Origin: Desulfuromonadaceae bacterium
Lineage (GTDB): Bacteria; Desulfobacterota; Desulfuromonadia; Geobacterales; Pseudopelobacteraceae
NCBI GenBank assembly: GCA_028712075.1
Contig: JAQTQX010000010.1
Coordinates: forward strand, 62,001-126,000
Direction: 5' to 3'
DNA length: 64,000 nt
Shown: piece after piece, positions 289-8,963 of the stretch
Layout: the number at the start of each line of letters is the position of its first letter
How positions within the stretch are numbered: position 1 is the stretch's first letter
Notes under the pieces: model-generated
What the model saw: the letters and a program-made list of their open reading frames with translations, nothing else
Told to the model about the DNA's origin: nothing
Databases searched by the model: none
Translations under genes and position numbers: made by a program

Positions 289-1524
289 TCACGCAGCAAC
301 ACTGTCTCGCCAGGTAAAAGCATGTAGCTGTGCCTGCAGAAGATTTTCAATCGAGATACCTGACTCGGCCAATAACTCCTCTACCCCGCCAAAATTGGTG
401 ATTTCGAGAGTTTCCGCCAATGAGAGCAGCAAGCCAAGCTCGCCCTGACGATTTAACAGGGCGTCAGAAATCTCTTCTGAAAGACTCAAATTTGATACAA
501 TCACCTCCATTGACGTATCAAAGAGGACATCCAACAAGGAAAAGATACCGGTCATAAAAGCGGCATCAACCAGTTCGCTCCCCCGAAAAAGTTTATGGCG
601 CTGCATGATGAGATGTTCAATCAAACGCCCGCGAACAGCAGCCATCTCTAAAAGCGGATTATTGACACCGCGTTCATCGGCAGTCGCAAAAAGAGCCAAC
701 TGAACCCAGCGGCGCAATTTGTCAATACCCAGAATGGTGATGGCATGACGAAGCCCTTTGATCTTCTCTCGTAGACCAAGAGAAACTGAATTCACCAAGG
801 TAAGCAACTGAAATGACAATGCCGGACTTTGCCGAAATAACTCTTCTATTTCGCCAATATCGGCTTCGGTCATCAGTCGTCTCAGCAGTCGCATCATCTC
901 CATCTGTGATGAATCAAGGCTATTACGCTTAAGAACCTCCGGTCGTTCAAAAAAGTAGCCCTGAAACAGATTTAACCCCAACTGTTTACAGTCATTGAAC
1001 TGCCCGATCGTTTCAACTTTTTCAGCAACAAGTTGTATGGGGTAGTGGTTCAGAGCAGTGACAACAACAGGAATCAGTTCCGTGGGGATCTCTAAAATAT
1101 CAAGCTTGATGAAATCGACAATCTGGTAAATTTCATCATTCTCAGAATTGTAGACATGATCATCAAGTGACAGCCTGAACCCCATTTTTTTGAGTTCCAG
1201 GCAACGCTCTTTGGCATGGTCATCCAAATCAACAAACTCCAGCAGCTCAAGCACTGTCTGATTGACCGGGAGCACTTCGAGAAGCTCAGAGAAGAAAATT
1301 GACTGATTGACGTTGATGAAACCGAGCTTATCTCCCAGAATGCTGTGCAGCCCGAAACCGGCCAACGCACTGGCGATGACTGAGGCTGAGGCAACACTAT
1401 AATCAACAATAGTGGCATAATTACAGTCAGCGGCACGAAACAGCAGTTCATAACCAATAATCACTTGATCTACGTCCAGTACCGGCTGTCGACCCAGAAA
1501 ATACCGACTGTTTTCAGTAGTCAC
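289..1524 (-). CDS. EAL-HDOD signalling protein (YuxH type), probably non-catalytic EAL
   Basis: The protein has 411 residues. Residues 1-200 form an EAL-like domain (YELLFR at 25-30, NVNQS at 71-75, IKLD at 139-142, AEKVET at 167-172, QGYFFERP near 188). Residues from about 205 form an HDOD domain. In active c-di-GMP phosphodiesterases the metal-binding loop reads DDFGTG; here it is DDHVYN, so I infer that the EAL part binds a partner or nucleotide rather than hydrolysing c-di-GMP. The start is GTG, chosen because AAGGGG lies about 10 nt upstream. It is the last gene of the minus-strand sensory locus, after the MCP, which suggests a role in motility or surface behaviour. The domain call is firm; the function is inferred. 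Confidence 0.88.
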   Translation of the reverse strand: MTTENSRYFLGRQPVLDVDQVIIGYELLFRAADCNYATIVDYSVASASVIASALAGFGLHSILGDKLGFINVNQSIFFSELLEVLPVNQTVLELLEFVDLDDHAKERCLELKKMGFRLSLDDHVYNSENDEIYQIVDFIKLDILEIPTELIPVVVTALNHYPIQLVAEKVETIGQFNDCKQLGLNLFQGYFFERPEVLKRNSLDSSQMEMMRLLRRLMTEADIGEIEELFRQSPALSFQLLTLVNSVSLGLREKIKGLRHAITILGIDKLRRWVQLALFATADERGVNNPLLEMAAVRGRLIEHLIMQRHKLFRGSELVDAAFMTGIFSLLDVLFDTSMEVIVSNLSLSEEISDALLNRQGELGLLLSLAETLEITNFGGVEELLAESGISIENLLQAQLHAFTWRDSVAA

Positions 1525-1657: not shown

Positions 1658-3373
1658 CTACATCCTGAACTGGGCTACAATTCGCTTAAGCTCTTCTGCC
1701 ATTGCAGCGAGCTCTTGAGCCGATCCGGCAGTGTCCTGCGAGCTGTGGGATGCCTCGCTGACGACTTCGGTAATCTGGTGCATGCTCTTGCTAATTTCAT
1801 TTGTGGTAGCAGTCTGTTGCTCGGCAGCTGTTGCTATCTGATTGATCTGGCTGGTCAGATCTCCAACCTGGTTGATAATTTCTTCAAGTGCCTGACCAGA
1901 TCGGGAAGCATCCTCAGTACCACGTTCAACCTCTTTAACGCCATCCTCCATCGCTTCAACAGCTGACTGAGTCTCCTTCTGGATGGCTTTTATCATCTCG
2001 CCGATTTCCCGCGTTGCCCTGGTTGTGCGCTCGGCAAGTGCCCGGACTTCGTCAGCGACAACCGCAAAGCCACGACCCTGCTCCCCGGCTCGGGCAGCTT
2101 CGATGGCAGCATTGAGTGCTAACAGGTTGGTCTGGTCTGCAATATCCTCAATCGTGCCAACGATGTTGCCGATTTGTTCAGAACGGGTGCCGAGCAATAC
2201 AACAGTTTTGGCACTTTGCTGAACTTTGTCGGCGATGCGCTGAATGCTTTGTACGGCATGGTTGACCACCTCAGATCCATTCAGTGCCGTCTGGGTGGCG
2301 CGATTGGAAATCTCCACCGTACGAATGCAGTTATTAGCGATATCTGCTGATGTTGCAGCCATTTCCTCACAAGCAATCGCTACAGAAGTAGATTGCGAAG
2401 CAGCTCGTTGTGTTCCGCTTGCAATGGTAGCTGACGTTCTGTTGAGATTATCTGCAGAGCCTGCAACATCGACAGCATTTTGACTGATACGAACGATTAT
2501 TTCTTTCATGTTATCAAGAAAAAGGTTAAATGAATGGGCAAGGGAGCCGGTTTCATCTTCACGCTCGATCTTGAGGCGACGCGTCAGGTCACCGCCGCCT
2601 TCGGACATCTCTTTCAGGCTTGAATCAACATAACCAAGCGTTCTCGTTATACCTTTGCTGATAAAATAACAGAGTACGAGCATGAATAAAGCAAAAACTA
2701 TGTTCAAAACCACTAATACCCATTTAACAGCCGCTATATCTTTTTTGACATCGTCGATATAGATGCCACTACCAAGTACCCAGCCCCATGGCTCATATTT
2801 TTGCACGTACGATAACTTGGTATATAACTCTGTTGTCGTTCCACCACCTGCCTTCGGCTTGGGCCACTCATAGTTTACAAAGCCGTTTCCAGATCGATCG
2901 ACGACCTCGGCAAAGGTTACAAACAAATTTTTCCTATCAATTTTCTGATTTTTTCCGTTAACTCCATCACTCATGGAAGTGGCTTTATTGAATTTTTGAT
3001 CGTCAAGAACTTTGCCATCCAATGCAGGAACAGTTGGATGCATTATCATTTTCGGTACAGGCTTACTTAAATCGTTGATCCAGACATACTCCACTTTTTC
3101 ATAACGCAGCTTTGAAATACGTGCAGCAGCTTCTTTCTGCGCCTGCTCGAGTGCTATCTTTCCACCTTTAACTTCGGCGTCATAGTACTCAACAATCCCC
3201 ATAGCCATTTCGACCACATGCCTGGTGGCATCTTTCTTCTCATTCATTATCCTCTTTTCGATCATCGGCAATAAATAGGCAAACATACCAAGCATCATAA
3301 CTATAACGCTTATGATCGAAATCGACATGATTTTGTACTGAATTCGCCAGCTTTTGAACAGAATGATTCCCAC
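1658..3373 (-). CDS. Methyl-accepting chemotaxis protein with single Cache sensor
   Basis: The 571-residue protein has a first membrane segment at about 15-37 and an extracytoplasmic region at 41-212. That region resembles single-Cache sensors ([37 protein letters not shown]). A second membrane segment lies at about 217-238, followed by HAMP (about 239-292) and a long coiled-coil signalling domain. The conserved hairpin tip is present ([20 protein letters not shown], with [12 protein letters not shown] after it). The C-terminus ends AQFRM and carries no CheR/CheB-binding pentapeptide. The start is GTG with AAGGAG upstream. Cache sensors of this kind usually bind small organic acids; the ligand here is unknown. 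It lies 33 bp downstream of the CheB-domain gene, which could act on its methylated glutamates. Confidence 0.95.
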
Positions 3374-3406: not shown

Positions 3407-3970
3407 TTACCCGAACATTTCTTTTATTTTGTCAGCAATACGGTCGGTCGAGAAAATATAATCTATGCATCCCGTTTCTGCAGCCGCTTTAGGCATGCCA
3501 TATATGATACTTGTTTTTTGATCTTGGGCAATCGTTGTCCCGCCAAGTTGTTTAATATGGATAATTCCGGCAGCGCCATCAGCTCCCATACCGGTTAGAA
3601 TGACACCGGCAATCTTGGCCCCAAACGGCGTGGAGAGAGATTTCATAGCCACATCAATCGATGGGCGAACTGAATTAACTTTCTCACTGTCATTCAAGTG
3701 AATCACCCTGTTTCTCACCAGGGTCAAATGCCTCCCCCCCGGTGCCAGATAAACGCGCCCGGCCTGAATATTTGTTCCTTCCTGAGCAAGTGTGATCGGC
3801 ATCCTTGACACTCTGGCAAGTGATGTAACAAACGATTGATCAATCAAGGGAGTAATATGCTGAATTATGACTACTGCTGCATTCAGAACAGGAATACGGG
3901 GAAACAACTCTTCGAGGATTACCAATCCACCGGTGGAAGAGCCTATCATGACAAGATTGCAGGTCGGCAT
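3407..3970 (-). CDS. Stand-alone CheB-type protein-glutamate methylesterase domain
   Basis: At 187 residues this is about half the size of ordinary CheB and has only the catalytic domain. The triad is visible: Ser12 in GSSTGG, His38 in IIQHI and Asp131 in TGMGADG. CheB removes methyl groups from (and deamidates) MCP glutamates in the cytoplasm. Canonical CheB has an N-terminal receiver that blocks the active site until phosphorylated; here that receiver is missing, but a separate receiver gene ends three bases upstream on the same strand. No Shine-Dalgarno sequence precedes the ATG, which suggests translational coupling to the receiver gene. The MCP gene follows directly. The family call is firm; the link to the neighbouring receiver and MCP is inferred. 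Confidence 0.93.
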   Translation of the reverse strand: MPTCNLVMIGSSTGGLVILEELFPRIPVLNAAVVIIQHITPLIDQSFVTSLARVSRMPITLAQEGTNIQAGRVYLAPGGRHLTLVRNRVIHLNDSEKVNSVRPSIDVAMKSLSTPFGAKIAGVILTGMGADGAAGIIHIKQLGGTTIAQDQKTSIIYGMPKAAAETGCIDYIFSTDRIADKIKEMFG

Positions 3971-3973
3971 GTT

Positions 3974-4366
3974 TCAGTTTTTACCAGTCAACTGATCTAG
4001 AACAACCAGATATTTTCTGATTTTTTCAATAAAACTTTCCGGACTGAACGGTTTGGTTATATAGTCGACGATGGTTTCCTGCAAACCTTCCATTCGTTCA
4101 TCGGGTATATCCAGAGCGGTCAACATGGAGATAACATTTCCGGGCTGAAGACCCGCTTTCTGAATTTCACGAATAGTCTCCCAGCCATCCATTTCGGGCA
4201 TCATGACGTCCATCAGAATAACACCCCTGAACCCGTCCTTTAGCTGCTGCAGGCATGCACTGGCGCCGGCAACGGTTATAACATCAATTCCTTCGGATTC
4301 AAGTAGCATGGTAACAGTTTCACGTATACACTCTTCATCATCAACCAACATCACCTTGGCATCCAT
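3974..4366 (-). CDS. Single-domain response regulator (receiver only)
   Basis: This 130-residue protein is a receiver domain without an output domain. The acidic pocket (Asp9, Asp10), the phospho-acceptor Asp53 in MDVMMPEMDGW, the switch Thr83 in MLTAL and Lys105 in TKPF are all present. It sits between a histidine kinase gene (33 bp upstream) and the CheB catalytic-domain gene (3 bp downstream), so the two together reproduce the receiver-methylesterase order of canonical CheB. It could work as a CheY-like free regulator, as a phosphate sink for the two kinases, or as a control subunit acting in trans on the methylesterase. The sequence does not decide between these. Confidence 0.92.
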   Translation of the reverse strand: MDAKVMLVDDEECIRETVTMLLESEGIDVITVAGASACLQQLKDGFRGVILMDVMMPEMDGWETIREIQKAGLQPGNVISMLTALDIPDERMEGLQETIVDYITKPFSPESFIEKIRKYLVVLDQLTGKN

Positions 4367-4399
4367 TATGTTGTCCCTCCGTAACTGTTTAAATATCAG

Positions 4400-5926
4400 T
4401 CAGTAAGCTTCTTGGTTGATGGTGAATATGATCGCGGCCCCCTTACCAAGACCCTGACTTTCGGCCCATATCCGGCCGTGGTGGTTAAGAACAATGCGTT
4501 TGCAGATTGCCAAGCCGAGCCCTACAGCATCGAGATCATGGCGAGATTCATCTACTTTGAAAAAAGCGTCAAAAATGCAATCAAGATGTTCGGTTCTCAG
4601 ACCGACCCCCTCATCACGTACCGCCACGGTTACCGTGCCGTCCTGCTGCTCTGCAGTTACCCGGATAGTGGTATGCGGTGGAGAAGCGTCGACCGAATTG
4701 GTAATCAGGTTGGCAAAGAGAACCGTAAGCTGCTCCGAAACTGCAGGCACAATTACGTCAGGTCGTATATCATTTTGCCAGGTAACATGTTTCACTGCCA
4801 TCACGTCGGCATTCTCTGAATATGCGATGTCAGCCGTGAGCGAAAGTGATGTGTGTGCCAGACTATCTCTGGCTATTGGGATGCTGAGATTGGCAAGGGC
4901 CTGTGCCCGATCAATCAACTTAGTAATGTTCGTGGTGCTCCTGCGGCAGATGTCCAGCATCCTTTCCAGCTCGGGGTTATTTGTTACCCGTTCCTTGATA
5001 AGCGGCAAAAGAGCAGTCAGAGGTGTCAACGGAGTTCTCAGATCATGTCCCAACCGCATCATGAACGCCTCTATGATTTTTGCCTGCTGCAGTCCCGATT
5101 CCAACCGTATCCTCTCTTCCTCCGACCGCTTGTATGCAGTAATATCACGAATCGACTCGATACCGCCGGACGGATTTACCTCTTTGTCAAAAAGCGGCGT
5201 TGCAGTAGCCCAGAAAGTGCGATTGCCGCCATTGCGGAACGAGGGGATAAATATCTCTGCAAAGAGGGTATTACCATCCATATTGAAGTGGGTAAAGTGC
5301 TGGCGCATCAGATCCGGTTCCTGGCCGAGAAGATCAATCAACATCGGTCGCTCTTCACCATAGAATGCCAAAGAACACTTGTGGCTGGGCTTTCCCAACA
5401 TTTCATCCTTCCCGATGCCGCTCATCTTTTCAATTGCCCGGTTCCAGGCAATTATTTTATTACTCCTGTCCACAACGAGGGTGGCGTCAGGCAGAAATTC
5501 CACGATGTCAACTAACTGCTGATAAGCGCTTTTGGTTTCATCCTCTGCTTGTTTTGCCCGGGAAATAGCAGCTGTGAGCGAATCTGCTTCCAGATTGATT
5601 AACTCACCCATTTTGGCAACGATTTCACTTCCGGAATTCACTGCAGCGCGAGCGGAAAAATCTCCCTGGGAAATACGGTTGAGAATTTCATAATGCTCGC
5701 AAAGCCCCATCGCCATTTCCTGGGCAACGCTGTTTGTATCCTCGATGTAGGCGCCCAGGTCGTTGACAAGTTTCTTTACTGTTCGAAAATGGTCATGTTC
5801 GGCAATTTCCTGAAAACGGGCAGCAGTATCACCACTACATATCCTGGTGAGAATATCAGTTAACTCGGGAAGGGGCAATATCATACCATCCTGTCCCGAA
5901 ATATGATTTGCTTCCTGTTTACGCAT
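4400..5926 (-). CDS. Soluble PAS-domain sensor histidine kinase
   Basis: The protein has 508 residues and no membrane segment. A HAMP-like helical stretch lies at about 70-120 (ILNRISQGDFSAR), a PAS domain at about 137-270 (LPDATLVVDRSNKIIAWN), and the HisKA phospho-acceptor is His294 in GHDLRTPLTPL. The ATPase domain follows, with an N-box at Asn410 (LITNSVDA), DEGVG at 438-442 and GLGLAICK. It overlaps the end of the hybrid kinase gene by 8 bp and is followed by the receiver gene. The likely partner is that receiver; cross-phosphorylation with the hybrid kinase is also possible. The signal sensed is unknown. A PAS-kinase identity is secure. Confidence 0.93.
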   Translation of the reverse strand: MRKQEANHISGQDGMILPLPELTDILTRICSGDTAARFQEIAEHDHFRTVKKLVNDLGAYIEDTNSVAQEMAMGLCEHYEILNRISQGDFSARAAVNSGSEIVAKMGELINLEADSLTAAISRAKQAEDETKSAYQQLVDIVEFLPDATLVVDRSNKIIAWNRAIEKMSGIGKDEMLGKPSHKCSLAFYGEERPMLIDLLGQEPDLMRQHFTHFNMDGNTLFAEIFIPSFRNGGNRTFWATATPLFDKEVNPSGGIESIRDITAYKRSEEERIRLESGLQQAKIIEAFMMRLGHDLRTPLTPLTALLPLIKERVTNNPELERMLDICRRSTTNITKLIDRAQALANLSIPIARDSLAHTSLSLTADIAYSENADVMAVKHVTWQNDIRPDVIVPAVSEQLTVLFANLITNSVDASPPHTTIRVTAEQQDGTVTVAVRDEGVGLRTEHLDCIFDAFFKVDESRHDLDAVGLGLAICKRIVLNHHGRIWAESQGLGKGAAIIFTINQEAY

Positions 5927-8900
5927 GAAGACCTACCACTTGTGTGACTCTCTCAATGAGTTGCTCTGCGGTAAATGGTTTTTTCAGGAAATTGACCGAT
6001 TCTTCGAGGGTTCCATCATGAATGACCATGTCACTGGTATATCCGGAAATATAGAGCACCGCCATAGCAGGGCGTCTATGCCGCAGAATCTCAAATAATT
6101 CCATGCCGTTCATATCGGGCATAATGACATCGGTCAGCAACAGATCTATGTTCCCTCCAAATGAGTGCTCAATCGCCTGAGCGTCTTGAGGTGATGCAGC
6201 TGCAAGCACATTGAAACCAGCCGATTCGAGCAAGTCAACGGCCATTTCCCGTACCATGATATTATCTTCCGTCAGTAAGATTGTAGTAGAAACAGCATGA
6301 TCAGTGTCGTTCTCAACGCTGATTGATTTCATGCCGCTCTGAATTAGTCCTTCTGTTGTAGTCGGCAGATATATGAGAAACGTAGTCCCTTTTCCAACAT
6401 GACTTCGTGCCTCAATGTATCCTTCATGTTGTTTTACTATGCCATAAACCGTTGCCAGACCTAGACCGGTACCATGACCAACCGGTTTGGTCGTGAAAAA
6501 TGGTTCGTAAATATGATGCAGCGTATTGTCGTCCATTCCACAACCGGTATCCATGAAGCCAAGTAAAATGTAAGAACCTGGCAGCATACCATGATGCTGA
6601 CGAGCGTATTCATCGTCCAGCAACACATGACCGGTGTTCACGGATATGGTACCGACTCCGGAAATTGCGTCCTGAGCGTTCACCGTCAGGTTCAGGAGTA
6701 CCTGCTCAAGTTGGCTGCGGTCGGCCTTGAGAATTACTCCGCCAGGTGCGAGTTTTACATCTATTGATATATTTTCACGAATGGTTCGCCGCAGAATGTC
6801 TTGAAAGGATTCAATAACCTCATTTAAGTCTATAATTTCCATATTGAGCATCTGTTTGCGCCCAAATGACAGCAATTTCTGGGTAAGATCCTTGGCTTTA
6901 TTGGCTGCGGAAATAATACCGTCAATCCTCCGATTCAGTGGGTCTTCCGCAGGCAGACCTTTTTTTGCCATTTCGGCATAGACAAGAATCGGTGTCAGCA
7001 GATTGTTGAAATCATGTGCAATTCCGCCAGCCAATTGACCTATTGCCTCTATTTTTTGAATATGAAGCAACTGTTCTTCAAGTTTTTGACGCAGCTCCTC
7101 CTCACGTACCTTCCCGATGGCAATGCTGGCGAGATTTGCTGCCGCTTCAATAAACAGGATTTCTTCGTGTTGAGGAGTACGGGGCTCACGGTAATACATG
7201 GCAAATGTACCCAAAATAGTCCCATTCGAAGAGAGCACCGGTTCGGACCAGCATGCATGCAATCCGGCTTCCTGTGCCGGTTTAAAACCTTTCCAGAACG
7301 GATGCCCATCAATCTCTTCGACAATCACGCGAGTCTTCAGAAAGGCCGCCGTGCCGCAGGATCCCATCCCCTGAGCGATACGGAGTCCGTTCACAGCTGC
7401 ATTATATTGATCAGGCAGGCTGGGCGCGGCACCATGTTTCAAGTGTGTACCATTTTCATTGGCCAGAAGCACCGAACAGAGTGATCCAGGGTTCTCCTGC
7501 TCAACAAAACGGACAATCATCTCCAGCAGTTCGGGCAACAAACTGCCGGTGGCCATGCGTTCCAGTATTCTGAGGCGAGTTTCATCACGAACAGCATCTT
7601 TTTTGCGTTGGGAAATATCCCGTACGATACTGAGTATATAGGGCTGGTCGTCACTGATCATGATTCGGGCGTGGCCTTCAATCGGCAGAGTAGTTCCGTC
7701 CTTGCAAATAAACGCCGATTCAAAGGTCATTTGGCCATTTCGCTGTAACAGCTGGATATTAGAGCTTATGTTATCTGAAAATTCAGGCGGTTCGATATCG
7801 TGCAGGCGAATACCGCTTAACTCTTCACTACTGTAACCGGTCATCGCACAAAGTGCCTGGTTAAATTGAAGCAGGCTGCCATGTTCATCCAATTGCAGTA
7901 TGGCATCACTTGCCGCATCAATCTGGGCTGCTTTAATTTGGAGTTTTCTTTCCTGCTCGTTAATTTCGGTTCTACTGCCGTGCAGGCTGTCCATCTGGCG
8001 AAACAGGATTTTCGATAGAATAATTATTACGAGGCACAATCCGATTGTCATGATGGACTGAAACAGCGCTTTGCTCATCAGTGGGGCAAGAACGTCCCCC
8101 TTGTGCAGGGCGACAACGGCGATGACAGGAAACCGCTTGAGACGCTGATAGGAGATGATGCGGGGTTCATTATCAACAGTGCTGTGAGCTATCTGATAAT
8201 AACCTGAGGGAGCTGCGGGGAGTTTTGTTGTGAATAACAGAGTGGAACTGAGGCTGGATTCATATGACTTGTCAGTGCCTGGCTCAAACACCAGCGGCAT
8301 GCCGTCATCCCTGACCAGCACTATCCTGCCGCGAGGACCAAGGCTGGTTGCACCGAGAAAATCTTTAAAATAAGATACTTCAAACGCAGCCGCGATTATA
8401 CCGCTAAAACCGCTATCCGTTTGATGAAGCGGACGCATCAGGTTGAACCGCCACCGGTTGACCAACCTGCTGATGACAGGTTGGCCGATGGTAAGGCCTG
8501 CCCCTGGAGTGTTAAGATAGTGTTTAAAGTAGTCCCGATCAGCGACATTGATCGGTTTTTGGGGGAACTGATTGGTATTGACGAGCATGTTACCGGCGTT
8601 GTCGACGACAAAGAGGGCGCCAACCTGGGGAGCACCTTCCGATTGTTTAAGAAGAAGATCGTACAGGGCGTGCCGTTCAAATTGTTCAGCTCCGCCTTCC
8701 CGTTCCAGTTCATGAACAGTGTCCCGTAAAATGCGGTCAGCTTCTGCAAAGGCACTTTCACTATGTTCAGCAAGTGCCCGGACATAGCCTGCAGCCTGTC
8801 TTTCGGCAGAGGTTATGGCATTATCGTACTGAACATACATGCTCCATACCGAAATGCAGACAACTATTGCCACTATTCCGACAAGGTAGCGCATAATCTG

Positions 8901-8963
8901 TTTTTTTATGTGCGGAATTGTTTTTAACTCGGAAGAGTTCTTAACCCCGTATTCTGTTGACAT
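5919..8963 (-). CDS. Membrane hybrid histidine kinase (Cache-PAS-GAF-HisKA-HATPase-receiver)
   Basis: This is a 1014-residue kinase. Membrane segments lie at about 26-46 and 302-322, flanking a double-Cache-like periplasmic sensor (ADRDYFKHYL near 141-150). A PAS domain follows at about 345-455 and a GAF domain at about 470-620. The phospho-acceptor is His650 in GGIAHDFNNLL. The N-box is Asn762, the G-boxes are DTGCGM and GTGLGLATVYG, and the C-terminal receiver (about 894-1010) has Asp945 in LLLTDVIMPDMNG. The domain order fits a kinase that integrates an outside ligand with cytoplasmic input. It is the first gene of the minus-strand sensory locus. GGGGAAAAGG lies directly before the start. 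The periplasmic ligand cannot be read from the sequence. Confidence 0.93.
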   Translation of the reverse strand: MSTEYGVKNSSELKTIPHIKKQIMRYLVGIVAIVVCISVWSMYVQYDNAITSAERQAAGYVRALAEHSESAFAEADRILRDTVHELEREGGAEQFERHALYDLLLKQSEGAPQVGALFVVDNAGNMLVNTNQFPQKPINVADRDYFKHYLNTPGAGLTIGQPVISRLVNRWRFNLMRPLHQTDSGFSGIIAAAFEVSYFKDFLGATSLGPRGRIVLVRDDGMPLVFEPGTDKSYESSLSSTLLFTTKLPAAPSGYYQIAHSTVDNEPRIISYQRLKRFPVIAVVALHKGDVLAPLMSKALFQSIMTIGLCLVIIILSKILFRQMDSLHGSRTEINEQERKLQIKAAQIDAASDAILQLDEHGSLLQFNQALCAMTGYSSEELSGIRLHDIEPPEFSDNISSNIQLLQRNGQMTFESAFICKDGTTLPIEGHARIMISDDQPYILSIVRDISQRKKDAVRDETRLRILERMATGSLLPELLEMIVRFVEQENPGSLCSVLLANENGTHLKHGAAPSLPDQYNAAVNGLRIAQGMGSCGTAAFLKTRVIVEEIDGHPFWKGFKPAQEAGLHACWSEPVLSSNGTILGTFAMYYREPRTPQHEEILFIEAAANLASIAIGKVREEELRQKLEEQLLHIQKIEAIGQLAGGIAHDFNNLLTPILVYAEMAKKGLPAEDPLNRRIDGIISAANKAKDLTQKLLSFGRKQMLNMEIIDLNEVIESFQDILRRTIRENISIDVKLAPGGVILKADRSQLEQVLLNLTVNAQDAISGVGTISVNTGHVLLDDEYARQHHGMLPGSYILLGFMDTGCGMDDNTLHHIYEPFFTTKPVGHGTGLGLATVYGIVKQHEGYIEARSHVGKGTTFLIYLPTTTEGLIQSGMKSISVENDTDHAVSTTILLTEDNIMVREMAVDLLESAGFNVLAAASPQDAQAIEHSFGGNIDLLLTDVIMPDMNGMELFEILRHRRPAMAVLYISGYTSDMVIHDGTLEESVNFLKKPFTAEQLIERVTQVVGLHA

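What the first reader, a model, noticed from the sequence alone, without database searches (positions are those of the whole stretch)
3407..4366. A CheB split into separate receiver and methylesterase genes
Seen: a 130-residue receiver gene and a 187-residue CheB catalytic-domain gene lie 3 bp apart, in the same order as the two halves of normal CheB. The second gene has no Shine-Dalgarno sequence, pointing to translational coupling. Known: in canonical CheB the receiver inhibits the esterase until phosphorylated. Inference: the receiver may control the esterase in trans, or the gene has been split by a stop and restart.
Basis: partly seen in the sequence, partly recalled or inferred. Interest (0 to 1): 0.6.

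Follow-up and report, generated by a model that had tools for sequence, protein, structure and literature searches.

The report
Separate receiver and CheB esterase genes
Two neighbouring genes make a signal-receiver protein and a receptor-adapting enzyme (the CheB esterase) that in most bacteria form one protein; here they have stayed two genes, side by side, across distant bacteria and methane-making archaea, which suggests that an ordinary sensor kinase may be wired into the machinery that tunes chemotaxis receptors.

Summary
A 130-aa receiver gene (4366..3974, -) is followed after 3 bp by a 187-aa CheB catalytic-domain gene (3970..3407, -) with no Shine-Dalgarno. It is not a recently broken CheB. 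The same two genes sit side by side in 101 places: 57 in the window's class and 44 in Methanomicrobiales archaea. They lie in all three relative reading frames and are never fused. An in-frame read-through would leave a 7-residue linker, against 27-57 in 30 fused CheB ORFs. The receiver forms its own clade, resembles PhoB-, OmpR- and CheY-type receivers more than CheB receivers, and has a different face where CheB's receiver docks. In a forced-fusion AlphaFold2 model it does not pack like CheB, while a same-genome fused CheB does. The pair is usually preceded by a histidine kinase. In the window's lineage it is followed by a chemoreceptor with a conserved methylation-like site. Best reading: an old kinase, receiver and free-esterase module in which the receiver tunes the esterase in trans; that contact is inferred, not shown. 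CheBs without a receiver are already known (Campylobacterota F3 class, Myxococcus CheBa). I found no description of this pairing in the open-access literature searched. New variant of a known kind, moderate interest.

The parts
3974..4366 (-). Single-domain response regulator (receiver), 130 aa; D9/D10, phospho-acceptor D53, T83, K105 present
   Evidence: D10, D53, T83, K105 invariant in the family; D9 nearly so
3971..3973 (-). 3-bp junction between receiver stop (TGA 3976-3974) and esterase ATG; in frame here, but in any of three frames in relatives
3407..3970 (-). Stand-alone CheB methylesterase catalytic domain, 187 aa; catalytic S12, H38, D131 invariant
4375..4380 (-). Shine-Dalgarno (ggaggg) of the receiver gene; none precedes the esterase gene
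4400..5926 (-). Soluble PAS histidine kinase, 508 aa (PAS, HisKA, HATPase_c), probable phosphodonor; kinase homologues precede the pair in most related loci
5919..8963 (-). Hybrid histidine kinase, 1014 aa (dCache, PAS, GAF, HisKA, HATPase, receiver), overlaps the kinase gene by 8 bp; homologues recur near the pair in several relatives
1658..3373 (-). Methyl-accepting chemotaxis protein, 571 aa (Cache, HAMP, MCPsignal), 33 bp after the esterase gene; likely substrate
1805..1834 (-). Methylation-like site [10 protein letters not shown] in the MCP (residues 514-523), EQQTAT core kept in all ten MCPs checked; no C-terminal pentapeptide
289..1524 (-). EAL-HDOD protein, 411 aa, same strand, 133 bp downstream of the MCP; possible last gene of the operon

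Best explanation
An ancient two-component module made of a histidine kinase, a single-domain receiver and a free CheB catalytic domain, translated from neighbouring and probably coupled genes. Most likely the kinase phosphorylates the receiver, and the receiver then modulates the free esterase/deamidase in trans (activity or recruitment to the receptor), so that a conventional sensor kinase can set the modification state of chemoreceptors beside or instead of CheA. In the window's lineage the target would be the MCP encoded next in the operon. Shown: gene structure, conserved catalytic and phospho-acceptor residues, co-conservation, kinase and MCP linkage, MCP methylation-like site. Inferred: phosphotransfer from this kinase, contact between receiver and esterase, the sign of regulation, and the substrate.
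For: 101 adjacent receiver-esterase pairs in two domains of life. Co-occurrence in 51 genomes with the esterase never found without the receiver subfamily (Fisher p about 3e-55, uncorrected for phylogeny). In the three class genomes where one esterase copy has no receiver next to it, a subfamily receiver lies elsewhere. Histidine-kinase sequence directly upstream in 19 of 20 archaeal loci, the other cut by a contig end, and in most bacterial ones. Catalytic triad and receiver active-site residues invariant. Type A loci are followed by a dedicated MCP with a conserved [10 protein letters not shown]-like site. Type B loci sit at the end of a cheA-cheW-mcp-cheR-cheD-cheB operon. Deleting the receiver of E. 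coli CheB activates it less well than phosphorylation does (PMC8609364), so a free esterase gains from an external regulator. A receiver supplied in trans restored regulation of the kinase RsbK (PMC4574943).
Against: No direct evidence of contact: the read-through model has confident domains (pLDDT 93.5) but an uncertain arrangement (pTM 0.66) and no CheB-like packing; the 7-residue linker makes this a weak test of an in-trans complex. Nine of 110 receivers lack an adjacent esterase; some sit in che operons next to a fused CheB. Three type A esterase-MCP pairs have lost the receiver. About half of type A loci have no kinase immediately upstream. Operon neighbours need not bind.
Confidence: 0.5

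Rival explanations
1. The receiver and the esterase are operon neighbours with separate outputs: the free esterase is constitutively active (as receiver-less CheBs may be), while the receiver reports the kinase's signal elsewhere, for example to the motor, to CheA or back to the kinase.
For: Receiver-less CheBs exist without such a partner (Campylobacterota F3 class, PMC9321776 and PMC9239204; M. xanthus CheBa, 185 aa, PMC3945109). Kinase-receiver pairs without the free esterase occur in che operons (G183, G207). Three esterase-MCP pairs have no receiver next to them. No docking in the model.
Against: Tight adjacency and co-occurrence across bacteria and archaea; every class genome with the esterase keeps the receiver subfamily.
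Confidence: 0.3
2. The pair is a canonical CheB cut by a stop codon and restart; the receiver is the old CheB receiver and inhibits by the same docking.
For: Same order as the two halves of CheB; in frame across one TGA in the window and in 15 other class pairs. An AU test does not reject a deep common clade of pair receivers and CheB receivers (p 0.534).
Against: All three relative frames (27/39/35 over 101 pairs). TGA, TAG and TAA all used at in-frame junctions. Linker of 7 residues against 27-57. The best CheB receiver of the same genome ranks 66th among 132 receiver hits. Separate clades, 98-99 support for pair receivers. Different alpha4-beta5-alpha5 face. Read-through TM 0.54 to 1a2o against 0.85 for the control. 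No fused member found.
Confidence: 0.06
3. The free esterase acts mainly on something other than chemoreceptors, such as its own histidine kinase or another coiled-coil protein.
For: Type B and archaeal loci have no MCP directly after the pair in most cases. Four of 32 archaeal genomes with this kind of esterase show neither CheR nor MCP. Methylation of a hybrid kinase by a CheR-type enzyme is documented (RsbM on RsbK, PMC4574943).
Against: Type A pairs are tied to a dedicated MCP and type B pairs to a che operon. 28 of 32 of those archaeal genomes have CheR and MCPs. The four without may be incomplete MAGs of 1.3-2.2 Mb.
Confidence: 0.12
4. Sequencing error, assembly artefact or decaying pseudogene.
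For: One stop codon separates two in-frame halves in the window.
Against: Independent genomes show the same two-gene layout with intact active sites.
Confidence: 0.01

Closest known systems
Canonical CheB (REC-CheB; Salmonella 1A2O, Pectobacterium 6YMZ)
   Same: Same catalytic fold and triad; receiver and esterase in the same order; probably the same chemistry on MCP glutamates and glutamines
   Different: Two proteins; no 27-57 residue linker; receiver of another type with a different docking face; usually served by a PAS histidine kinase
CheB lacking the receiver in chemosensory class F3 of Campylobacterota (PMC9321776, PMC9239204)
   Same: Stand-alone esterase
   Different: There the literature notes an extra receiver in CheA; here a separate single-domain receiver gene sits directly upstream, often with its own kinase
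Myxococcus xanthus CheBa (MXAN_0714, 185 aa; PMC3945109)
   Same: Same size and architecture of the esterase, not in a che operon
   Different: No linked receiver is reported there; orthology not tested here
3CG4, CheY-like receiver of Methanospirillum hungatei
   Same: Nearest solved structure to the receiver subfamily (160 bits against 85 for the next; TM 0.91 to the model)
   Different: Structural-genomics entry with no function assigned; whether its gene neighbours a CheB was not checked
RsbK/RsbM of Bacillus cereus (PMC4574943)
   Same: A receiver acting in trans within a methylation-linked signalling system
   Different: Methyltransferase on a kinase, engineered split, no CheB partner

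Membership tests
CheB methylesterase catalytic domain (PF01339) | Full-length domain match above the curated cut-off | tested here: met
   194.1 bits against cut-off 24, model positions 1-174/174
CheB methylesterase catalytic domain (PF01339) | Catalytic Ser-His-Asp | tested here: met
   S12, H38, D131 invariant in 16 sequences; correspondence to S164/H190/D286 of Salmonella CheB from established knowledge and the homology alignments
CheB methylesterase catalytic domain (PF01339) | Esterase/deamidase activity on MCPs | not testable with these tools
   Needs biochemistry
Canonical CheB response regulator (REC-linker-CheB) | Receiver and esterase in one polypeptide | tested here: not met
   Separate genes in 101 of 101 pairs, three relative frames
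Canonical CheB response regulator (REC-linker-CheB) | NCBIfam CheB subfamily models above cut-off | tested here: not met
   193.1 bits against cut-off 342 (NF009206) and 191.2 against 293 (NF001965) for the esterase; 52.9 against 293 for the receiver
Canonical CheB response regulator (REC-linker-CheB) | Receiver of the CheB type | tested here: not met
   Own-genome CheB receivers rank low among hits; separate clade; lacks the conserved ALExGA motif before beta5. A deep common origin is not excluded (AU p 0.534)
Canonical CheB response regulator (REC-linker-CheB) | Receiver packed on the esterase as in 1A2O | tested here: inconclusive
   Read-through model TM 0.54, rmsd 18.5 A against 0.85 for a fused control, but the short linker prevents a fair test of docking in trans
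Single-domain response regulator | Receiver with DD, D, T/S, K active-site residues and no output domain | tested here: met
   D9/D10, D53, T83, K105; 130 aa, only Response_reg found
Single-domain response regulator | Phosphorylated by a kinase | not testable with these tools
   Kinase adjacency only

The most novel reading that the evidence does not exclude
A conserved cross-domain signalling module in which an ordinary histidine kinase controls a free CheB esterase through a separate, non-CheB-type receiver, giving a CheA-independent input into receptor adaptation, and shared between Geobacterales bacteria and Methanomicrobiales archaea, possibly by gene transfer between syntrophic partners.
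Probability: 0.4. Interest if true: 0.65.

Novelty: new variant of a known kind. Interest (0 to 1): 0.45.

Why it matters
CheB is the textbook case of an enzyme held in check by a receiver in the same chain. A natural set of lineages that keeps the two as separate genes, with a different receiver type and an own kinase, would make it possible to ask how a receiver controls an esterase without a tether, and would show a route by which non-chemotaxis sensor kinases feed into receptor adaptation. It also warns that in-frame neighbouring domains separated by one stop need not be a broken gene.

Tried and rejected
Recent split, read-through or programmed suppression of the TGA: rejected by three relative frames and by three different stop codons at in-frame junctions. 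Fused members in archaea, suggested by 289-317 aa open frames: these are shadow frames over the receiver gene, not fusions. A tree proof that the receiver is unrelated to CheB receivers: not reached; 126 columns do not resolve it (AU p 0.534). TAL-effector hits in the PDB search with the esterase profile cover only about 27 residues, have no stretch that passes alone and are treated as chance. Djordjevic 1998, for the exact interface residues, is not held, so the docking face was named from established knowledge. A receiver search over the phylum found the subfamily only in the window's own family, but the sample was drawn evenly and thinned out the order.

Full report
Observation. Pfam finds one domain in each, complete. 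The receiver gene has a strong Shine-Dalgarno (GGAGG) and so has the MCP gene after the pair (AAGGAG); the esterase gene has none, which fits translational coupling here. Relatives differ at this spot, some with GGAG, some with an ATGA overlap, so the missing site is not a family rule.

Setting in the window. On the same strand lie, in order: a hybrid kinase (8963..5919), a PAS histidine kinase (5926..4400), the receiver, the esterase, an MCP with Cache and HAMP domains (3373..1658), and an EAL-HDOD protein (1524..289). The host genome has ten CheB domains (three of them stand-alone) and ten CheR above cut-off.

Conservation. Profiles of the two subfamilies were searched over 277 genomes of the class. 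There were 63 receivers, 60 esterases and 57 adjacent pairs; relative reading frames were 16/25/16 and no fusion was found. 51 genomes hold both, one the receiver only, none the esterase only. In 199 Methanomicrobiales genomes there were 47 receivers, 50 stand-alone esterases and 44 adjacent pairs, frames 11/14/19. Four of the six unpaired archaeal esterases score lowest (166-178 bits), and for the three of these whose genomes were searched for CheR, the esterase lies next to a CheR gene; they are probably another kind. Two Verrucomicrobia loci carry the same kinase-receiver-esterase order. In 19 of 20 archaeal loci a kinase homologous to the window's is directly upstream; the other is cut by a contig end. 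An evenly drawn sample of 395 genomes of the phylum found the receiver subfamily only in the window's own family, so the distribution is patchy.

Two bacterial layouts. Type A: (kinase)-receiver-esterase-MCP, as in the window; of the type A loci with enough flank about half have the kinase immediately upstream, and three esterase-MCP pairs have no receiver. Type B: the kinase-receiver-esterase set follows a che operon that already has a full CheB (cheA, cheW, mcp, cheR, cheD, cheB; Pfam-checked in L151). The type A MCPs keep an EQQTAT methylation-like site and have no C-terminal pentapeptide.

Is it a split CheB? Five lines say no, at least not recently. (1) Frames and stops as above; in-frame junctions use TGA, TAG and TAA. 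(2) In the read-through protein 7 residues separate the receiver and esterase models; in 30 fused CheB ORFs 27-57 do. (3) In the own genome the receiver's best hits are non-CheB receivers; the best fused-CheB receiver ranks 66th of 132. In NCBIfam the receiver scores 74.5 bits to PhoB against 52.9 to CheB, and the nearest solved structure is the archaeal CheY-like 3CG4. (4) Pair receivers form one clade (98-99 SH-aLRT) apart from CheB receivers, and the paired esterases form one group (89). An AU test cannot exclude that pair and CheB receivers are deep sisters (p 0.534), so ancient separation or fusion stays open. (5) The region before beta5, ALExGA in CheB receivers, reads GLQExVxDY here and is itself conserved. 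That the alpha4-beta5-alpha5 face docks on the esterase in 1A2O is established knowledge, not tested here.

Structure. AlphaFold2 of the TGA-read-through chain gives two confident domains (pLDDT 93.5) with an uncertain arrangement (pTM 0.66). Against the PDB each half fits on its own (3sft 0.90, 3cg4 0.91) but the whole does not fit 1A2O (TM 0.54, rmsd 18.5 A). A fused CheB of the same genome, with a shallower alignment and a disordered linker, gives pTM 0.78 and TM 0.85 to 1A2O. The control is helped by solved CheBs in the training data, and the short linker limits the test; docking in trans is not excluded.

Mechanism. The free esterase keeps its catalytic residues and the receiver its phosphorylation site. 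The E. coli catalytic fragment alone is activated relative to unphosphorylated CheB, but less than by phosphorylation (PMC8609364). The best-supported reading is kinase to receiver to free esterase to receptor. Everything after gene linkage is inference.

Known or new. Receiver-less CheBs are known, and 'CheB' and 'REC-CheB' architectures are both listed for archaea (PMC5847659). Seven searches of the open-access library and the papers read did not turn up this receiver-esterase pairing; subscription papers and supplementary tables were not seen. Hence a new variant of a known kind.

Noticed in passing
L152 5404-5964 (own genome C29:49436-49969): A second stand-alone CheB (186 aa) beside a CheR (276 aa) and a 753-aa GAF-containing protein, with no MCP gene found adjacent.
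   Followed up: partly
L153 5794-6390 (own genome C29:116838-117365): A third stand-alone CheB (198 aa), nearest to CheB-CheR fusion proteins in the tree, near a protein that looks KaiC-like by eye.
   Followed up: no
G277, G278, G420, G436 (Methanomicrobiales): Genomes that keep kinase-receiver-esterase but show neither CheR nor MCP; may be incomplete MAGs or the module working outside chemotaxis.
   Followed up: partly
G255 C8:73164 and C4:109372 (L022/L103, L149): In this genome (Pelotalea chapellei by record title) the type A esterase has lost its receiver and a type B receiver has lost its esterase, leaving one of each at distant places.
   Followed up: no
L151 6467-8254: After the type B esterase comes a 596-aa protein with a weak MCP signalling domain (48 bits), followed by a CheY-like receiver.
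   Followed up: no
Distribution of the pair: Patchy presence in Geobacterales and Methanomicrobiales, groups that include known syntrophic partners, would fit gene transfer between them.
   Followed up: no
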